Assembly (NCBI RefSeq): GCF_032854445.1
Contig: NC_088306.1
Span: 12,395,386 to 12,459,385 of the forward strand
Length of the DNA stretch: 64,000 nucleotides
Direction: 5' to 3'
From: Liolophura sinensis
Lineage: Eukaryota; Mollusca; Polyplacophora; Chitonida; Chitonidae
The notes under the pieces: model-generated
What the model saw: only the letters and a program-made list of their open reading frames with translations
Databases searched by the model: none
Told to the model about the DNA's origin: nothing
Shown: positions 3,046 to 57,365 of the stretch, piece after piece
How the letters are laid out: each line of letters opens with the position of its first letter
How positions within the stretch are numbered: the first letter of the stretch is position 1
Made by a program: the position numbers and the translations under genes

Positions 3046-6000
3046 GCTTTCATATTTTATTTTCACTCTGGCGAAAATAACAACATAAATTGTGCTTGAA
3101 TGGTCATCAATGTTCCAGCAAATTATGTCATATTTAGCGAGTACATATAGCACCTAGATGCTTTTCATGAATCCTGTGAATGTTAGGATGACTTTACGTC
3201 AGAGTTTTCCCGAATTCAGAAACTAACACTGACAATACGTGGCTCTCGTACGTTGTCTTTTGTGTTGAAACTTTGTGTTAATTTTTAGGGGACATGGTTT
3301 TGGGCAATTTTCTTCTCGGGTTGTCTTCTTAGTGACTGGAGAGATTATCAGAGGTCACGGACATATTCCAGAAAAGGAAAGCAGATTTATGTGCAAAATA
3401 TAATGCAAAAACGGATAGCAAACCCAGTTACTTTCCAAGGTGTGCAAGAAATATTGAGTGAAAATGAAGTTAGCCTCTATATCTGAGGCAAGAATTGTCA
3501 CATTTTACGCTAATTGCATTATTCAAGCCTTCCGAAAGAGACCTAATGAATAGCACGATTGTGAGATATAGATTTAGTTCGGTCACACAGAGCGGCTGAT
3601 ATATAGCCACTTGACATCTTCACCGCAGTCAGCATGTTTTAGATTTATACCACTTAGGCGCCATAGTGCAGCACGGTAATGCCTGCAAGATTTATTGACT
3701 TGTTCTCGTCATGGATCGAGTGCCGGTAAATTGCACAACGACGGCCCAAAGCTTGGTGTGAAAAGGTTCACCTTTATCTGGACGTGCTTTGTGTTGGTGG
3801 ATCGACCGTGTGGGAAAACGAGAAAACCAAGAAGGCAATTGTACCCCGTCCCTCAACGGAATGCCTACAGAAATGATCGACACATCGATGTCTATATTCT
3901 CGCCAAAGCTCAAAGTGTCACTTAACGGTTTCATAACAACAGACATCTTAAGGCCCACGAAAACATCAAAGTTGTGATGTGAATGTGCGGAAGGTGTTTT
4001 TCTCATGTGAAAGACCCGGGATTTCTGAATGGAAGAGCCCTTTACATTTTGGTAATGTAATCGTTGGCTTAACCCTTGAAACGTTTGTGGTAACACGGAA
4101 CTGCATGAACGAACACAACTAAAAAATCGTTCTTTAAATTTGTTCTTGAAAAATTGCTTGCAAAAGTCCATGTTTTCAGACACGAGGTGTGCGTGCTTTC
4201 TTCTACTCCCAAACCCTCACCGGCTATGAGCGTTAGGCCAGGAGGTTTTCATGTACCCAGCGAGGTGTGACACCGTCACACTCTCCCACACTGCCCCCTC
4301 CCCTCCCCGCCCGCCCATGCTGTAGGCTGATACATTGTATTCTTGCAAAAACCAGCTACTGATGAACAACGCATCCCCGAGGTGTGGTCATTTTGCCTTG
4401 TTTCGATGTAATTGAACATCACTGCGTTTGTTTTTACCTTAGGTTGCTGAAACCTTTGTACCAAGGAGCATATAAGTTTGCATGAAACACTTGCATGAAT
4501 GACCTCAAAACCTGAGGTATGTTGTTCAAGGCCGAATGACACCGGCTTTGTGTGGCCACGTGTTATGATCTATTTCACAGTCGCCGCTATTCTGGTTTTG
4601 TTCTCCTAGCCAGAATCCTGTATATCGCACTCTGCTCTGTCAGTCTCTTCTATCTATGCTCTTACTCTGAAACCTCTCTGAGTGCAGCTTTACCTCATGA
4701 GGAATGTCTCGTACCTGGTGAGGTGAGGTAGATTCGATCCGGTATTGCTACACGCATAAACAAGTCTCCAGTCGTCCCCTTGATAGTGGGGTAAAACACC
4801 AATCATATCATTCAATGAATACAAAGGTAAAGAAGAAGGTTATAACAAATTTCAGTGTTGAAAAAATGAAATACCGCTGTTCTGTACACCATCCAGAACC
4901 CATGACATTCTGTGCAACATTACTTGTCTAAAGATTTCAGTGTCCTTATTGGCTACACGATATTCCATATACCCAGAAGTAAATGAATACTAAAGACTTA
5001 TTAGCACAATTTAAGTTATATCAAGTGCTTTATCAACTCCTTTGGAGAGCATCCAACGTGCTGTTTTTAAGCAAAATAATAGTTGGGACTCGGGAACCCC
5101 GTCAACGTCAAGTTTTTTATTTTATCTACCTGACCATGCTGCGCCGACACTGACGCCTAAGTCCCCTATCTTTTGTCTTTAACAACAGAGACACGACGGC
5201 GGCATACCAATGGCTGTCTTATGGTTCTCAAAGGCAGCCGAAGTCCAGGTGATCTCACTGTCTCCGCCCGATAACGGACGGAGACGCCGCCTGGGAATAT
5301 TCAAAGTCAGTGAGACATGGTAATTCGTTTAGAGAGGTTGAGACAACTGGTGTCAGCCATTTTATTCTCCTTGTACAAATCAAATAAAGCGACCGGGGAC
5401 CTTTACAAGCCAATACATTATTGAAGGAAATACCAACCACTTGCTGAACAGAAGAACATGCCAACATTTCAATATCGCCAGACGAAATTATCGGGAAAAT
5501 ATCGGTGGACTTCGGTTATGTGCAGGTCTGGTAGGTTTCCGGGCAATCCGTCCAGCTAGTCAGCGTGAAATACCATCCATGTGATAATGTCAAGATTACG
5601 AACATATCTGCCGGATTTCTTTGGACGATTTGTCAGCGGGCTAGTAACTTATAATGTGTGGTGGGAAAAATTGATGGGGAAAAAAACCATTGGCTTTATG
5701 TGAAATGCAAGCATCCTCTTTCATGTTATAATTTCTGCGTTCACGCCTGTTGGTTGAGGCATTTTCTACAATACTGTCATATAATCAAGTTCTTATCCAT
5801 TTCCATTAAAACTACGTAGTTCTGAACAATGCAGTTGTCCTTTGAAAACAACTTTGAAACAGGAAAAGAGAAACTCGGATATGTTCCGATTGTTGTTAAA
5901 GTACAAAGGTGACTGGTGTCAGGATGCTCTGGTGACACATGTATACCGGACAAAGTAAAGCCCCTCACATCAAATGGTCACTAAATATCTTCAGACCTGC

Positions 6001-33164: not shown

Positions 33165-33241
33165 TTTATTATAGCTAATGAACTTCACATCAGTTATTTC
33201 ATTCATCAGTTTAAATTGACTTGCGTTGCTCAAGATTTATT
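33165..33241 (-). terminator. Candidate poly(A) signals of the selenoprotein gene
   Basis: AATAAA on the minus strand at 33236-33241 and again at 33165-33170, about 190-260 nt past the SECIS-like hairpin. Either could define the end of the mRNA. Confidence 0.5.
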
Positions 33242-33428: not shown

Positions 33429-33503
33429 AGAAAGCATCATTTCTCAGTCTGTACCAGTCACCTTGGAGAGGCAATTTAAAGGCAAGACGTCATTGAGCTT
33501 TCT
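33429..33503 (-). promoter_or_regulatory. Putative type II SECIS element
   Basis: Read on the minus strand. Helix I is AGAAAGC (33503-33497) with GCUUUCU (33435-33429), 7 perfect pairs. After a small internal loop come AUGAC (33493-33489) and, opposite, UGAG (33446-33443), giving the non-Watson-Crick quartet UGAC/UGAG with tandem G.A pairs. Helix II is GUCUUGCC (33488-33481) with GGUA-C-AGAC (33455-33447), 8 pairs and one bulged C. The apical part has UUUAAA with the unpaired AAA 11 nt after the quartet, then helix III UUGCC/GGUGA closing loop UCUCCAA. This is the architecture known for type II SECIS elements. It lies about 560 nt after the stop codon of the gene whose CxxC Cys is TGA, on the same strand. 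The folding was done by hand. Confidence 0.78.
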
Positions 33504-34066: not shown

Positions 34067-37000
34067 TTACAAAGACGCTGAACTCTGTAGCGGGAATTTC
34101 TCCGCCACTTTCTCGATGACCTTGATGAATGTATCCACGTCCTGAGCCCCCGAAAACACCCTTTGTCCGTTCATGTAGATACACGGCACACCTGGAGAAG
34201 AGAAACAGGTGAAATGTCGTGATAAATGCTCTTTGTGTTCTCACCCCCTGTCAGAATAGGCCCAGCTTCTACATGTACATGCATTGGTTGTCAGTTTCAA
34301 GGACCAAAGGGGACAGTAGACCTGTGTCAGTATACTGGTGTAATTCAGTAGGGTGCTCCAGTGACGCAGTACTACAGTCGGCATTAGGACGAGCGCTCTT
34401 CAAGGAAGTTCTAGTTGTTGACAAATAATGATGAAGCTACATTGAGGCTCGGACAAATCAACAGATAAAGCAATGTCATGTAAATTATATTTACTTCACC
34501 GTCAAAGCTTTACACAAAACCTAAAGCAGAATGATGAAAAATGGACTGATCGATGAAATTTGTGTGGAGAAAGCACAAATTGTTCATATTTATTTTCCAA
34601 AACCATTCGTCCTCGCTTCCATTCATTGCTTACCGGAGACTCCTTGTCTGGACCAGTCCTTTGCCCTCTCGTGTGTGTCCTCAATAGCGTTCTTGTCGCT
34701 CAGAAGAGCTTTCACTTCCGCTTTGTTCAATCCTGTGCGCCCAGCTATACCCACCAGAGCTCCGGTGTCCAAGAATATTCCGTCTGTAAAATAAGCCTAT
34801 GCAAAAAAGGAGAAAAAAATATGAAACAGATTTATATCTTACATATTATTTGCAAGAAAATGCTAGTTTACTTAGCATTGGTAGTAAAGCTACCAAAGAG
34901 CTCGCAGGTATGAGACACATGAATGCAAAACTTCATATAAAAAGCTCAATGCATAAAGAACTGAAATCGTGAATTTGGTTATTTACGGTATTTAACATGC
35001 TCACATAGCATCAGCGATGGAACATCCCCCTTGTGCAAATTTGTGCTCTATATACATGTAAAACTTCAGATAAATACATACAATAATATACAAGATACCA
35101 ACCTGACAATCTGTTTGACAGAGATTCTAATACATAATAAACTAAGTCAAGAATTCAGTAATTTGAGAGACTTAATATGTACCTGATCAACTATTGAATA
35201 TATCCCTCTCGTGCTATTGTGCTCTACATGTGTGCAAATCCTAAGCTCAACACATGCAGCACTTTTTGAGAAACCACCCCTTACACTTTGTTTAACGTTG
35301 ATTCTTGTACACAATACACTAAGTCAGGAATTCAGTAATTGACGGTACTTAATATGTACACACCAAATCAACGATGGAATATCCCCCTCCTGCTATTGTG
35401 CTCTACATGTGTGCAAACCCTGAGCCCATTATCTGCAGTACTTTTTAAGGTACCACCCCTAGCATTTTGTTTTCTCTCTTATTGGACGCCGACGTTCATG
35501 GTACGACATATGCTACGCCTGTACTTTATACAGGCGAGCAAAAAATGCATGAACTATTTAATTAATTTAATCTTCAGAAATTCAATCGGACATAATTTTT
35601 AATTTTCATTACATTGCGGAAGATACCTTAACCCATCCAGTCTAAATATCCAGTTGCACTGTCTTCTGTTTAAATAGTACTCGAATGAATAAGTTTACAC
35701 ATATTCCTAACATCAATATTTATACTCTGTGCTCTAAGTATCCATATCATCACTTTTTCAAATATTTTTATTACATCAACAAACACGGGGAACATGATGC
35801 TATTTTGTTTAAATAGCTCATTCTTTTACTTCCGGTTTCTCTTCCTTAAACCCCCGAGTTTCCGCTTACCTTATAGATTTCCTCCGCCACCCTGTTCTGG
35901 TACTTCCCTCCTTCCAGTTCCTTGGCGTATCGTAACAAGGTGTGGCCTTTCAAGGTGTTAGGTATCTTTGACGGCCTCTTTCTGAACTCTATCCCAACAC
36001 TGTGCCCAGCATCCTTTAACATCTTCACCCTGCAGATATCAAGGTGACCACTGTATGACCAGATCGTAACCCAAAATCACCCAATGATTTATCCTCACCC
36101 AATGATTTATCCTCACCCAATGATTTATCCTCACCCAATGATTTATCCAGCGATTTATCCTCCCCAGGGATTTATCCAATGATTTATCCTCACCCAATGA
36201 TTTATCCTCACCCAATGATTTATCCTCACCCAATGATTTATCCAATGATTTATCCAGTGATTTATCCTCACCCAATGATTTATTTCATTCATTCCAGTTT
36301 CCTGACCACCGCCATATATATCAGTGAAAATTTGTGAGAACAGCGTTACATGAAAAAAGCAGGCATGACTAAATAGGCCACTTAAAACTATACATAAATT
36401 TACTTTCATGTATTTTTTTTTACATTTTTGTGAAAAGAGTTAAAGGCGCTCAAACATTTGAATTCTAAGGAGGGCTTTATGGACCATACTATCAGATGTT
36501 AGCAACTCTGACGTCACAGGAAGTTTATCCAACTCTGATCACGATTCCGAAAGTTGGAATCACTCTTTTTACCGATGAGTAAAGGGTTACTGAAATAATG
36601 TTCCCAAAAATTTCTTTCCTTCGGTTGAACATCAGGGAAAAAAAAGGTGATTTCAAGTCAGAGTTCCTAGATACCGTTAGTATGGCTCATAAAGCCCACC
36701 ATACTATTCAAATATTTCAATGCCTTTCAACACTCTTTAAAAAAAAATTTGAAGAAATAAATGAAAGTATTTTTGCTCATAGTTTTCAGTTGTCTATGAT
36801 GAACCTTACTTCATATTTTAGCGTTCTTTTAATTTAAATAAAAATGAACTAAATTACTATAATATTTACTTTTTCATTGGAGTTCTCATCGATACGCTTG
36901 TCGTCCTGCTTATAAATGGAGGATACGTGATACATCCCAGATGAAGCCAACTCGACTCACTGAGTACATGACGTAATCTCATCAGTCAAAGCAGGCTAGT

Positions 37001-39199
37001 GGTCTGAACTTAAGCAATCTAAACGGTATGTCCCGATTAATGTATGAAATGATATGTTCATAGTTAAGACTAAATGATGAACTTACAGTGTGATGACGAA
37101 GGCTCTGTTTAACACGAACCTCTAAAAATATCTAAGCAATAGTTTGCTCTAAAAGCAATAGACCGTTTTTCCCCGGGCTCAATCCGGTTTACTCCTACCA
37201 TGATGCTGGCCTCCGTCGTATAAGTGAAATATTCTTGAGTATGATATAAAAAAACACCAGTCAAATAAATAATCAAAAGACGGTTTAATTGATGAATTAT
37301 GTGGCTACAGAAAGTTACAGAAATGCTGGACTCCAAAACAACCTATAACTATTTGGTGCAATTATGGAAACAATCCTTTACATGATGGTTTACTCCATCT
37401 TTTTGATGTCAGTGTCCAGTATGTGTGGATTTTTTCCCAGCGGGATTTCAGACTGGTGATCGTGAAGTCACAGCATTTTTTCCTGATCCTGAGCTAGGTA
37501 ACAGTTTAATCTTGATTAGGCATTATCCTCTATAAATATAGCACACATTCTAGAGATGAGTGAGTGAGTTCTTGGGGTTTAACATCGTACTCAACAATTT
37601 TTCGGTCATATGACGACGAAGGAATCCTTAGGGTGCATGTACGTGTAATGTGCCTCCTTGTTGCATTTCCACCGCTCTTTCATCTAGTGCTTCTTCACTG
37701 AGACGACTTACCGAAGGCAAGTAAGTCGCCCCGCCCGAGCCATTATACTGATACGGGCCAACCAGTCGTTGTACTATCCCCTTCATGCTGAACGCCAAGC
37801 GAGGAAGTTACAACTTCCTCTTTTAAAGTCTTAGGTGTGATTCGATCAAGGATTGATCCTTGATCTACTGGTCCCGATGCGAACGCTCTACCAACTGTGC
37901 TATCCAGGCCGGTTTTTCTAGAGATGAAAACTCACTGAAACTACCCCGGGTATCGAAGCAGCGACCTCAAAATCAGCATCAAATCGCCACCACTACATGT
38001 CAATAGTCACGGAGAATATGCATTACCACTGTTATCAGCAGAAATGATACAGCTCCCTAGCTGAATATATCAGATCCGTATTAATATCATTTAGAAAGTA
38101 GATATTTGACAATACACTCTCTAGAAATAGCGCGAAGCTATATATATAGAGAGTGTAAGCTCTAGTATATAAAACTGACATTTACCAATATGGTCATGAT
38201 AGAGATTCGCAGAAGTCGCCACGGGCCGATGGCACAATACGATTCTTGACAAAATTCGTAACTTCAGCGTGGTTTAGCGTCACCGATGTGCAAAATTGAT
38301 ATGTCTTTAACACAAACGACGTTCAGTTGCTTTTAGTTTGTGGGACATAACATTAAAATCAAGTTTCAAACATGCCAAAGTCAAAAGTGCATTCCTGGAA
38401 CCTGACACAGTCGTTTAATCTTGAAAGCTAACCCTGAGGCATCGGCATTTACAGAAATAAATCCGGGCGGATTAATTTCATATATACAAGTAAGAAAGAG
38501 TTTAGGCTTGTAGCATTATTCCGTGGACAACGATACAAATAGCAAATATTAGAGCAAAATAGATTAAAATCTATATGGGAAGGTCAAAAGATCAAAATGT
38601 CAGTACAGGGTTTAATACAAATAACAATGTATAAGAAGTGAGCTTTCCTTGGATTGTAGCATGCGGTTTTCACCCTCAAGATCCCCACGACTAGCCTAGA
38701 TTTTGCGCAGCACGGCCATGTAACTCAATGTACAGACGTAAACAAGGTACATTACTGCACCAACAATAGTCAGCTTTGGTAGACTAGGCCCTACCCACAC
38801 ACGCATGATTTGGACCTATATAGGCCCCGCCTGTGGATCTGAGCCACACGGACGGACAGATTACTTGTTGCACACAACAGAATTATGCTGGCATCATCAT
38901 TACAGCAAATGTAACTTTTTTGCCACCACCTATATGAATGATGTTATTTTATTTCCTGTAAAAAATGTTCTTTGTGTCTCGGCTTACCTGGGACTGTCAT
39001 CCGGGTACTTAGGGCTGGGTGTGCCCTCTGACGGGGTACTGGGTCGCAGAAGAAAGGGCTCCCATTGGACGCGAAACTCAAATTTGTCTTTGAGTTGCTC
39101 CACGGCTTGCTCCAGTCTCTTCTTAGCGACCCACCCCCATGGTCATATAATATCGCTGATAACGGTGACGTGGAACTCCGGCTTACCCCCTGACGACAT
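34067..39199 (-). CDS. DSBA/FrnE-like thioredoxin-fold selenoprotein
   Basis: Four exons join in phase: 39199-38988, 36029-35870, 34796-34634 and 34191-34067 (stop TAA 34067-34069), giving 219 residues. Donors are GTAAGC, GTAAGC and GTAAGC; acceptors end CTGCAG, GCATAG and CTCCAG. Start is ATGTCGTCAGGG at 39199. Residues 10-28 read HVTVISDII-[TGA]-PWGWVAKKR: TGA at 39143-39145 is codon 19, where DSBA-family proteins have the first Cys of CPWC, and the second Cys is Gly (U-P-W-G). Later family marks are KIPNTLKGHTLLRYAKE, KAYFTDGIF, AGRTGLNKAEV, GVPC with the cis-Pro at 181, and MNGQRVFSGAQ near the C-terminus. No signal peptide is seen, so it is probably cytosolic. Length is normal for the family. 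With Sec it should act as a thiol/selenol redox enzyme; substrate unknown. Alternative: a pseudogene with one nonsense change, made unlikely by intact splice sites, no other lesion and the SECIS-like hairpin downstream. Confidence 0.85.
35000..35545. repeat. About 179-bp tandem repeat, three copies, in intron 2 of the selenoprotein gene
   Basis: TGCTATTGTGCTCTACATGT recurs at 35212 and 35391, with an older copy at about 35033 (GTGCTCTATATACATGTAAA). Neighbouring AACACTAAGTCAGGAATTCAG-type and GGAATATCCCCCTC-type segments recur at the same spacing. Confidence 0.8.
36065..36292. repeat. 18-bp minisatellite (ATTTATCCTCACCCAATG)n at an intron end
   Basis: About 12 units, some shortened to ATTTATCCAATG. 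It sits in intron 1 of the selenoprotein gene and begins only about 35 nt upstream of the splice acceptor at 36030, where a branch point would normally lie. The two repetitive minus-strand frames (DKSLGE and NHWVRI repeats) are products of the 18-bp period. Confidence 0.92.
37165..37278 (+). mobile_element. SINE family 1, 5'-truncated
   Basis: CCCCGGGCTCAATCCGGTTT to CGTCGTATAAGTGAAATATTC and the tail CACCAGTCAAATAAATAATC, in plus orientation within intron 1 of the selenoprotein gene. Confidence 0.82.
37560..37917 (-). mobile_element. SINE family 2, full length with tRNA-like head
   Basis: Minus strand begins GGCCTGGATAGCACAGTTGG-TAGAGCG (A-box-like) and has GATCGAATCACACC (B-box-like). The body contains CCTCGCTTGGCGTTCAGCAT and the tail GTTAAACCCCAAGAACTCACTCACTCA. 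It lies in intron 1 of the selenoprotein gene. Confidence 0.85.
39143..39145 (-). other. In-frame TGA, predicted selenocysteine codon (Sec19)
   Basis: The triplet sits between ATTATA and CCATGGGGGTGG in the first exon of the DSBA-like gene, at the catalytic position of the CxxC motif. Reading through it restores 200 further residues over three more exons. Confidence 0.8.
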
Positions 39200-39924
39200 G
39201 TTGACACCTTCGAGATTCGAACTGCTGGCTATAGCCAACGCCTATAGGTACCGCTCCGAGATGAACAAGTCTTTCCCGATTTTCGCAGCTATGTTGTTGA
39301 TGTCGGAGGAAAAAGATGCTATGTCACGGTGATCGATAAGAGAGGCTCTGGATGATAGAAATCGATTACCGAGGTACGTGGTACGCTAAAATAACGCTAC
39401 AACATCAATAACTAAATGATGCTGCTTACAGTCTCCGCGAAGTGCTGATTTTTGAAGCTATGTATAGGCCAACGTTACACTGGCGCCTTTTGTCTCAAAC
39501 TTTGTTTCTTCAACTCATAAACCAACTCAACCATATCATCAGAGCAAGGTTGATGGTTTAAGCCATGGATTAATGGCCTGGATTAATGGCGAATGGCACC
39601 GTTCTCGTCCTCTCGTACCATTCGCGCCCGAACAGTGACCGCTCTCGTCCCCTCATCCTGCGACACCGTGGGTTGAGGCCCGCGGCGCGAGGACGTAGCA
39701 AATCGTGCGCGAATGATACGGATCGGGGACGAGGACGCGATCTGCGTCGTCCTCGTGCCGCGACCACATGATGTAGGCCTAAGCGCATTAGATTAATAGA
39801 ATAATCTCGAGCGCAGCCCGCTGAAATAATTGACATGTGTTTGTTTGGGACATTCTTAGACCTTGGACTACGCCACGAAATGGACAGACCTCTCCTGTTT
39901 TATACACACGGGGGCAGATATGAC

Positions 39925-56370: not shown

Positions 56371-56424
56371 TCGGAATAACCTAAATAATTGAATGAATAA
56401 GGAATGAGGCTTAAGGTCACAAGC

Positions 56425-57365
56425 AGCTAGCAATGAAGGGTAAAGTCTTTAGGATAGCAACGTGTACGTGATTATAGGAGCAGCTAGCAATGAAGGGTAA
56501 AGTCTTTAGGATAGCAACGTGCACATGATTATAGGAGCAGCTAGCAATGAAGGGTAAAGTCTTTAGAATAGTAACGTGTACTTGTTTATAGGAGCAGCTA
56601 GCAATGAAGGGTAAAGTCTTTAGGATAGTAACGTGTACGTGATTATAGGAGCAGCTAGCAATGAAGGGTAACGTCTTTAGGATAGCAACGTGCACATGAT
56701 TATGGGAGCAGCTAGCAATGAAGGGTAAAGTATTTAGGATAGTCACGTGTACGTGATTATAGGAGCAGCTAGCAATGAAGGGTAACGTCTTTAGGATAGC
56801 AACGTGTACGTGATTATGGGAGCAGCTAGTAATGAAGGGTAAAGTCTTTAAGATAGCAACGTGTACGTGATTATAGGAGCAGCTAGCAATGAAAGGTAAA
56901 GTCTTTAGGATAGCCACGTGTACGTGATTATCGGAGCAGCTAGCAATGAAGGGTAACGTCTTTAGGTTAGCAACGTGTACGTGATTATAGGAGCAGCTAG
57001 CAATGAAGGGTAACGTCTTTAGGACAGCAACGTGTACGTGATGATAGGAGCAGCTAGCAATGAAAGGTAAAGTCTTTAGGATAGCAAGGGTGCGTGATTA
57101 TAAGAGCAGCTAGCAATAAAGGGTAACGTCTTTAGCATAGTAACGATTATAGGAGCAGCTAGCAATGAAAGGTAAAGTCTTTAGGATAGTCACGTGTACG
57201 TGATTATAGGAGCAGCTAGCAATGAAGGTTAACGTCTTTAGGACAGCAACGTGTACGTGATTATGGGAGCAGCTAGCAATGAAGGGTAAAGTCTTTAGGA
57301 TAGCAAGGGTACGTGATTATAGGAGCAGCTAGTAATGAAGGGGTAACGTCTTTGCATAGCTACAT
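56425..57365. repeat. 57-bp minisatellite, about 16-17 units
   Basis: Unit contains GGAGCAGCTAGCAATGAAGG, GTAAAGTCTTTAGGATAGCA and ACGTGTACGTGATTATA. Period 57 bp. Because 57 = 19 codons, the minus strand stays open for 166 codons (57 bp = one AILKTLPFIASCSYNHVHV unit). Units after about 57080 carry indels that break this frame, so it is not read as a gene. Confidence 0.93.

What the first reader, a model, noticed from the sequence alone, without database searches (positions are those of the whole stretch)
34067..39199. Animal DSBA/FrnE-like protein with an in-frame TGA at the catalytic CxxC: a probable new-type selenoprotein
Seen: four exons join in phase into 219 codons with a single internal stop, TGA 39143-39145, flanked by SDII and PWGW. 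Family knowledge: DSBA/FrnE-like thioredoxin-fold proteins have CPWC here and Sec almost always replaces a redox Cys. The second Cys is Gly, giving U-P-W-G, so Sec would act alone. Inference: Sec is inserted at residue 19. Sec-containing DsbA/FrnE-like proteins are, as far as I know, described from bacteria and algae. I do not recall one in the usual animal selenoproteome lists.
Basis: partly seen in the sequence, partly recalled or inferred. Interest (0 to 1): 0.95.

Follow-up and report, generated by a model that had tools for sequence, protein, structure and literature searches.

The report
Animal selenoprotein of the DsbA/FrnE family
The gene is real and its internal stop codon very probably encodes selenocysteine, because a matching selenocysteine-insertion RNA element lies in the gene's tail, but this kind of animal selenoprotein has been described since 2010, so it is a new member of a known family.

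Summary
Four minus-strand exons (39199-34067) join in frame across three GT-AG introns into 219 codons with one internal stop, TGA 39145-39143, at the catalytic Cys of a DSBA-fold protein (Pfam E 2.3e-30). A protein search of the 609 Mb genome found no other copy. A form II SECIS lies at 33503-33429, about 564 nt after the TAA and before an AATAAA. It shares the register A-UGA-N12-AAA with seven reference elements from the same genome and is the only strict hit on either strand of the window, against 9 in 7.68 Mb of shuffles. The genome has two tRNA-Sec(TCA) genes and GPx exons with in-frame TGA.

The claim of a new animal selenoprotein type is not supported. Sec-DsbA was reported in Ciona and Branchiostoma (2010) and in Nematostella, Lottia, Capitella and Branchiostoma (2012); SelenoDB 2.0 lists it as FrnE. 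What is left is a detail: the resolving Cys is Gly (U-P-W-G), while 80 of 80 and 7 of 7 bacterial relatives aligned have Cys. A UxxV DsbA is already listed from marine microbes. No expression or peptide data were available.

The parts
38988..39199 (-). Exon 1, ATG to the AG/GTAAGC donor; holds the Sec codon
   Evidence: Translation and splice coordinates
39143..39145 (-). In-frame TGA, codon 19, at the first position of the CxxC-like motif (U-P-W-G)
   Evidence: Sequence; column is Cys in 80 of 80 and 7 of 7 homologues aligned
35870..36029 (-). Exon 2
   Evidence: GT-AG junctions, frame kept
34634..34796 (-). Exon 3
   Evidence: GT-AG junctions, frame kept
34067..34191 (-). Exon 4 with cis-Pro loop GVPC (Cys182, the only ordinary Cys in the protein) and TAA 34069-34067
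33429..33503 (-). Form II SECIS: helix I AGAAAGC/GCTTTCT, quartet ATGAC (TGA 33492-33490) with TGAG (33446-33443), helix II GTCTTGCC/GGTACAGAC, AAA 33477-33475, six-pair mini-helix
   Evidence: Found; coordinates; unconstrained MFE has this shape; only strict hit in the window
33236..33241 (-). AATAAA, first candidate poly(A) signal after the SECIS
   Evidence: Pattern search

Best explanation
This is the Sec-DsbA (FrnE) selenoprotein gene, with no second copy found, of an unnamed animal genome (taken to be an invertebrate; not tested). The 3' tail carries a form II SECIS. By established eukaryotic mechanism this would recruit SBP2 and eEFSec/tRNA-Sec, so that UGA at codon 19 is read as selenocysteine (inferred). 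The product, 219 residues with no obvious signal peptide by eye, is a DSBA-fold thiol/selenol oxidoreductase whose attacking residue is Sec19. Because position 22 is Gly, there is no classical CxxC partner. The intermediate is most likely resolved by glutathione or a substrate thiol, or possibly by Cys182 next to the cis-proline (inferred). Shown: gene structure, SECIS-shaped element, tRNA-Sec and other TGA-bearing genes, family. Inferred: Sec insertion in vivo and the chemistry.
For: Intact four-exon CDS with one TGA at the catalytic Cys. No other copy found: the protein search gave four stretches, all exons of this gene. SECIS about 564 nt past the stop; unconstrained MFE -19.5 kcal/mol in the SECIS shape. 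In one search, 4 of 1000 shuffled 864-nt tails gave a hit at e<=-8/h1<=-5 and 0 of 1000 at the candidate's level. The strict descriptor gave 1 hit on both strands of the window and 9 in 7.68 Mb of shuffles, 1 of them with helix II <= -10 and none that also had helix I <= -8. Seven reference elements from the same genome show the same A-TGA-N12-AAA register. tRNA-Sec(TCA): two genes called by ARAGORN (L037, L038). 7 of 15 GPx stretches contain one TGA. Sec-DsbA is known in animals.
Against: No RNA or peptide evidence. Rfam SECIS_1 does not hit the element; genome-wide it gave two hits at E<=10 with 150 of 13032 candidates scored. The fold is only moderately stable against shuffles (z -1.83; 8 of 200 fold at least as well). 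The scanner at loose limits is not specific: 19 hits in eight fetched stretches, 4 of them antisense and one inside a GPx exon, and one weak hit at 4026 on the window's plus strand. The strict form and its limits were set after seeing the reference elements, which my own scanner had found. Strict hits were recovered downstream of 4 of the 7 TGA-bearing GPx exons, at about 0.7 to 4.4 kb, and downstream of the three Rdx exons at 0.6 to 6.4 kb, so those gene assignments rest on position alone. No orthologue from a related animal could be aligned.
Confidence: 0.93

Rival explanations
1. Nonsense allele or young pseudogene: TGA arose from TGC/TGT and truncates the protein after 18 residues.
For: A single substitution from a Cys codon would give this TGA; no transcript data were available.
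Against: SECIS downstream; no other stop in 219 codons and six intact splice sites; no second copy found; the family is already reported with Sec at this site in animals.
Confidence: 0.04
2. Sequencing or assembly error at 39145-39143; the true codon is Cys.
For: Only one assembly is held.
Against: An error would not create a SECIS about 564 nt past the stop; in four GPx exons whose frame I read the assembly has TGA where GPx carries Sec (the GPx site is recalled).
Confidence: 0.02
3. Translation starts downstream of the TGA, giving a protein that lacks the active site; the SECIS-like hairpin is chance.
For: In Ciona and Branchiostoma the databases first annotated the gene this way (PMC2874816, passages).
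Against: Such a protein would lose the catalytic residue; the shuffle rate (9 strict hits per 7.68 Mb) gives about 0.001 expected strict hits in an 864-nt tail.
Confidence: 0.02

Closest known systems
Animal Sec-DsbA (FrnE) of Ciona, Branchiostoma, Nematostella, Lottia and Capitella (PMC2874816, PMC3473315; SelenoDB 2.0 FrnE, PMC3965025; passages read)
   Same: DsbA family; Sec replaces the upstream active-site Cys and a SECIS lies downstream (stated for Ciona and Branchiostoma); invertebrate; the two Ciona elements are form II like this one
   Different: Here position 4 of the motif is Gly. A published figure legend speaks of U(or C)XXC; I could not see the alignments themselves
Bacterial FrnE / DsbA family oxidoreductases (PDB 5cnw, 5cp1, 3gl5)
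   Same: Matched by sequence at 5.5e-16 and 6e-13; seven bacterial homologues are 29-36% identical; Val-Pro cis-Pro loop, N-terminal active site
   Different: Cys at both motif positions in all 80 loci kept and in the seven; Sec plus Gly here; introns and a eukaryotic SECIS
Marine microbial 'DsbA 3' selenoprotein (GOS survey, PMC2398784, passages)
   Same: PF01323 with Sec and no second Cys (UxxV)
   Different: From marine microbial metagenomes; Val, not Gly; sequences not compared here

Membership tests
Eukaryotic selenoprotein | In-frame TGA at a redox Cys position with homology on both sides | tested here: met
Eukaryotic selenoprotein | SECIS in the 3'UTR with quartet, AA/CC motif, helices I and II | tested here: met
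   not recognised by Rfam SECIS_1; that the stretch is transcribed was not tested
Eukaryotic selenoprotein | Host decodes Sec (tRNA-Sec, other selenoproteins) | tested here: met
   SBP2 and eEFSec not searched
Eukaryotic selenoprotein | Sec present in the protein | not testable with these tools
   Needs proteomics or 75Se labelling
DsbA/FrnE (PF01323) | DSBA domain above the curated cut-off | tested here: met
   106.2 bits against 25.6, with Cys written at codon 19
DsbA/FrnE (PF01323) | Attacking residue at motif position 1 | tested here: met
   The column of the invariant Cys holds the TGA; U-P-W-G
DsbA/FrnE (PF01323) | Resolving Cys at motif position 4 (usual, not universal: UxxV is listed) | tested here: not met
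   Gly22 here; Cys in 80 of 80 loci and 7 of 7
Animal Sec-DsbA clade | Groups with Lottia/Capitella/Branchiostoma Sec-DsbA in a tree | not tested
   I had no animal sequences of the family to align

The most novel reading that the evidence does not exclude
An animal Sec-DsbA lineage has dropped the resolving cysteine (U-P-W-G) and works as a one-selenol enzyme, resolved by glutathione or by Cys182 beside the cis-proline, and so has moved away from dithiol disulfide exchange.
Probability: 0.45. Interest if true: 0.4.

Novelty: new member of a known kind. Interest (0 to 1): 0.25.

Why it matters
It adds an example, with SECIS, of a selenoprotein family that passages of PMC3473315 call widespread in marine invertebrates and lost in vertebrates. 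The same paper notes that regular gene annotation programs fail on such genes because of the TGA. The missing resolving Cys makes it a simple case for asking whether Sec alone suffices in a DsbA fold.

Tried and rejected
The first SECIS scanner found nothing; it required too many pairs. Relaxing it on an Rfam-supported element (L005, whose gene I did not identify) gave the hit. Rfam on the 3' region gave no SECIS.

The idea that Cys182 replaces the lost resolving Cys is not supported by co-variation: 20 of 80 bacterial loci also have Cys there while keeping CPWC. One of the two patterns that gathered those loci demanded CPW[CG], so the tally at residue 19 is biased; it allowed Gly at residue 22 and none of the 80 has it.

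A covariance model was not built because MAFFT did not line up the 3' arms of the reference elements. PF01323 against the own genome missed this gene, so it says nothing about other DSBA genes.

Literature: eight searches. No title or abstract start in the listings that I saw names a UxxG animal DsbA, but none of the eight used that term; one search matched 1,105 papers, of which 20 were listed. Most subscription journals and all supplementary files are outside them.

Full report
OBSERVATION. The window lies in an unnamed 609 Mb genome (G000:C12:12395386-12459385). On its minus strand four exons, 39199-38988, 36029-35870, 34796-34634 and 34191-34067, join into 660 nt: 219 codons plus TAA, with a single internal stop at codon 19, TGA 39145-39143. 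All three introns are GT-AG. An in-frame stop lies upstream of the ATG.

FAMILY. With Cys written at codon 19 the protein scores 106.2 bits against Pfam DSBA (E 2.3e-30). By sequence it matches the solved FrnE chains 5cp1/5cnw at 5.5e-16 and a putative DsbA oxidoreductase, 3gl5, at 6e-13. A plasmid search matched 765 records; I fetched seven. They are 29-36% identical, with Cys at the column of codon 19 in 7 of 7 and at the column of codon 22 in 7 of 7. Their motif is CPWC in 80 of 80. One of the two search patterns required CPW, so this tally is biased for residue 19, though it allowed Gly at 22. The gene here has Gly22. The protein has one ordinary Cys, Cys182, next to the cis-proline (GVPC); 20 of the 80 bacterial loci also have Cys there, so it is not a special replacement for the lost Cys. 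In its own genome a protein search found four stretches, all exons of this gene. A search with PF01323 missed the gene itself, so that search is not evidence of absence.

SECIS. A scanner for the eukaryotic element, relaxed after calibration on a locus that Rfam SECIS_1 scores at 34.9 bits (L005; its gene was not identified), found one candidate on the sense strand between 34400 and 29000: helix I AGAAAGC/GCTTTCT, quartet ATGAC with TGAG, helix II GTCTTGCC/GGTACAGAC with one bulge, AAA in the apical part and a six-pair mini-helix. It lies at 33503-33429, about 564 nt after the TAA and before AATAAA at 33241-33236. The unconstrained minimum-energy fold of 84 nt has this shape at -19.5 kcal/mol; against dinucleotide shuffles the stability is moderate (z -1.83, 8 of 200 at least as stable). 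Over both strands of the window at looser limits the scanner gave this hit and one weaker one, at 4026 on the plus strand. In 1000 shuffles of the 864-nt tail, 4 gave a hit at e<=-8/h1<=-5 and none reached the candidate.

REFERENCE ELEMENTS. I fetched stretches downstream of GPx and Rdx-family (SelW-like) exons of the same genome. At loose limits the scanner is not specific: 19 hits in the eight stretches, four of them antisense and one inside a GPx exon. Seven elements that I took as references (L005, L022, L023, L027, L125, L126, L127) all have A-TGA-N12-AAA, and so does the candidate. With that strict form and energy limits set afterwards, the window has one hit on its two strands, the candidate. 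Sixty shuffled windows (7.68 Mb counting both strands) gave 9 hits, one with helix II at or below -10 and none that also had helix I at or below -8. In 205,622 strand-bases of fetched stretches there were 10 strict hits: six of the references in their own stretches, L028 (which is L005), a duplicate of L023 through overlap (L024), one more in sense downstream of a GPx gene (L025), and one antisense and unexplained (L029). Limits: the references are my scanner's own finds, so their recovery is no independent test. Strict hits lie downstream of 4 of the 7 TGA-bearing GPx exons, at about 0.7 to 4.4 kb, and downstream of the three Rdx exons at about 0.6, 3.5 and 6.4 kb, assigned by position only. 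I did not confirm a Sec codon in the Rdx genes. Rfam SECIS_1 does not hit the candidate.

MACHINERY. RF01852 gives 32 matches, five over its cut-off; the best two score 80.4 and 79.1 bits, and ARAGORN calls both tRNA-SeC with anticodon TCA (L037, L038). A third match, 59.3 bits, lies about 1 kb from the first; ARAGORN does not call it (in L039 it reports the L037 gene again), and the fourth, L040, is a tRNA-Ser. In the GPx search 7 of 15 stretches hold one TGA; in four of these I read the frame and saw the stop just before GLT, where GPx carries its Sec (L008, L009, L011, L015; the GPx site is recalled). The organism therefore very probably decodes Sec. SBP2 and eEFSec were not searched.

HOW IT MOST LIKELY WORKS. 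UGA at codon 19 is read as Sec under control of the SECIS (mechanism from general knowledge of eukaryotic Sec insertion). The Sec selenolate at the start of the active-site helix would attack disulfides, glutathionylated thiols or peroxides. A CxxC enzyme resolves the intermediate with its second Cys, which is absent here, so glutathione, a substrate thiol or Cys182 must do it. That the upstream Cys alone can work in E. coli DsbA is stated in a passage of PMC2874816.

WHAT IS KNOWN. From passages read: PMC2874816 reports Sec-DsbA with SECIS in Ciona intestinalis, C. savignyi and Branchiostoma floridae. PMC3473315 Table 1 lists Sec-DsbA in Nematostella (2), Lottia (1), Capitella (1) and Branchiostoma (1), with Cys forms in Amphimedon and Trichoplax, and calls it widespread in marine invertebrates. 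PMC3965025 adds FrnE (DsbA) to SelenoDB 2.0. PMC7539508 counts DsbA among selenoprotein families shared by algae and animals. PMC2398784 lists three DsbA selenoprotein groups in ocean metagenomes, two UxxC and one UxxV; PMC13188914 lists prokaryotic DsbA-like forms with UxxC and DxxUP. So the family is not new in animals, and Sec without a second Cys is not new in the fold. Whether other animal Sec-DsbA proteins have Gly at this place I could not see: the alignments are in figures and supplements not held.

VERDICT. A sound gene, very probably a working selenoprotein, and a new member of a known animal selenoprotein family. The U-P-W-G motif is a modest point worth an alignment.

Noticed in passing
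36077-36283: Minisatellite of an 18-bp unit (TCACCCAATGATTTATCC, about 12 copies) inside intron 1.
   Followed up: no
35123-35472: Two tandem copies of a 179-bp unit, 80% matches, inside intron 2.
   Followed up: no
about 37560-37920: Looks like a dispersed repeat by eye; a stretch near 37790-37850 recurs nearly unchanged in L043 on contig C1.
   Followed up: partly
56417-56917: Minus-strand ORF made of about nine 19-residue repeats (AILKTLPFIASCSYNHVHV-like), probably a minisatellite rather than a gene.
   Followed up: no
L022-L024 (G000:C1:34.845-34.872 Mb): Tandem cluster of glutathione peroxidase exons, four of them with an in-frame TGA before GLT, and two strict SECIS hits in sense between or after them.
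   Followed up: partly
L037, L038, L039: Two tRNA-Sec(TCA) genes, and beside the one on C6, about 1 kb away, a weaker tRNA-Sec-like match (59.3 bits) that ARAGORN does not call.
   Followed up: partly
38805-39332 (+): A 175-codon plus-strand ORF runs antisense to exon 1; probably chance.
   Followed up: no
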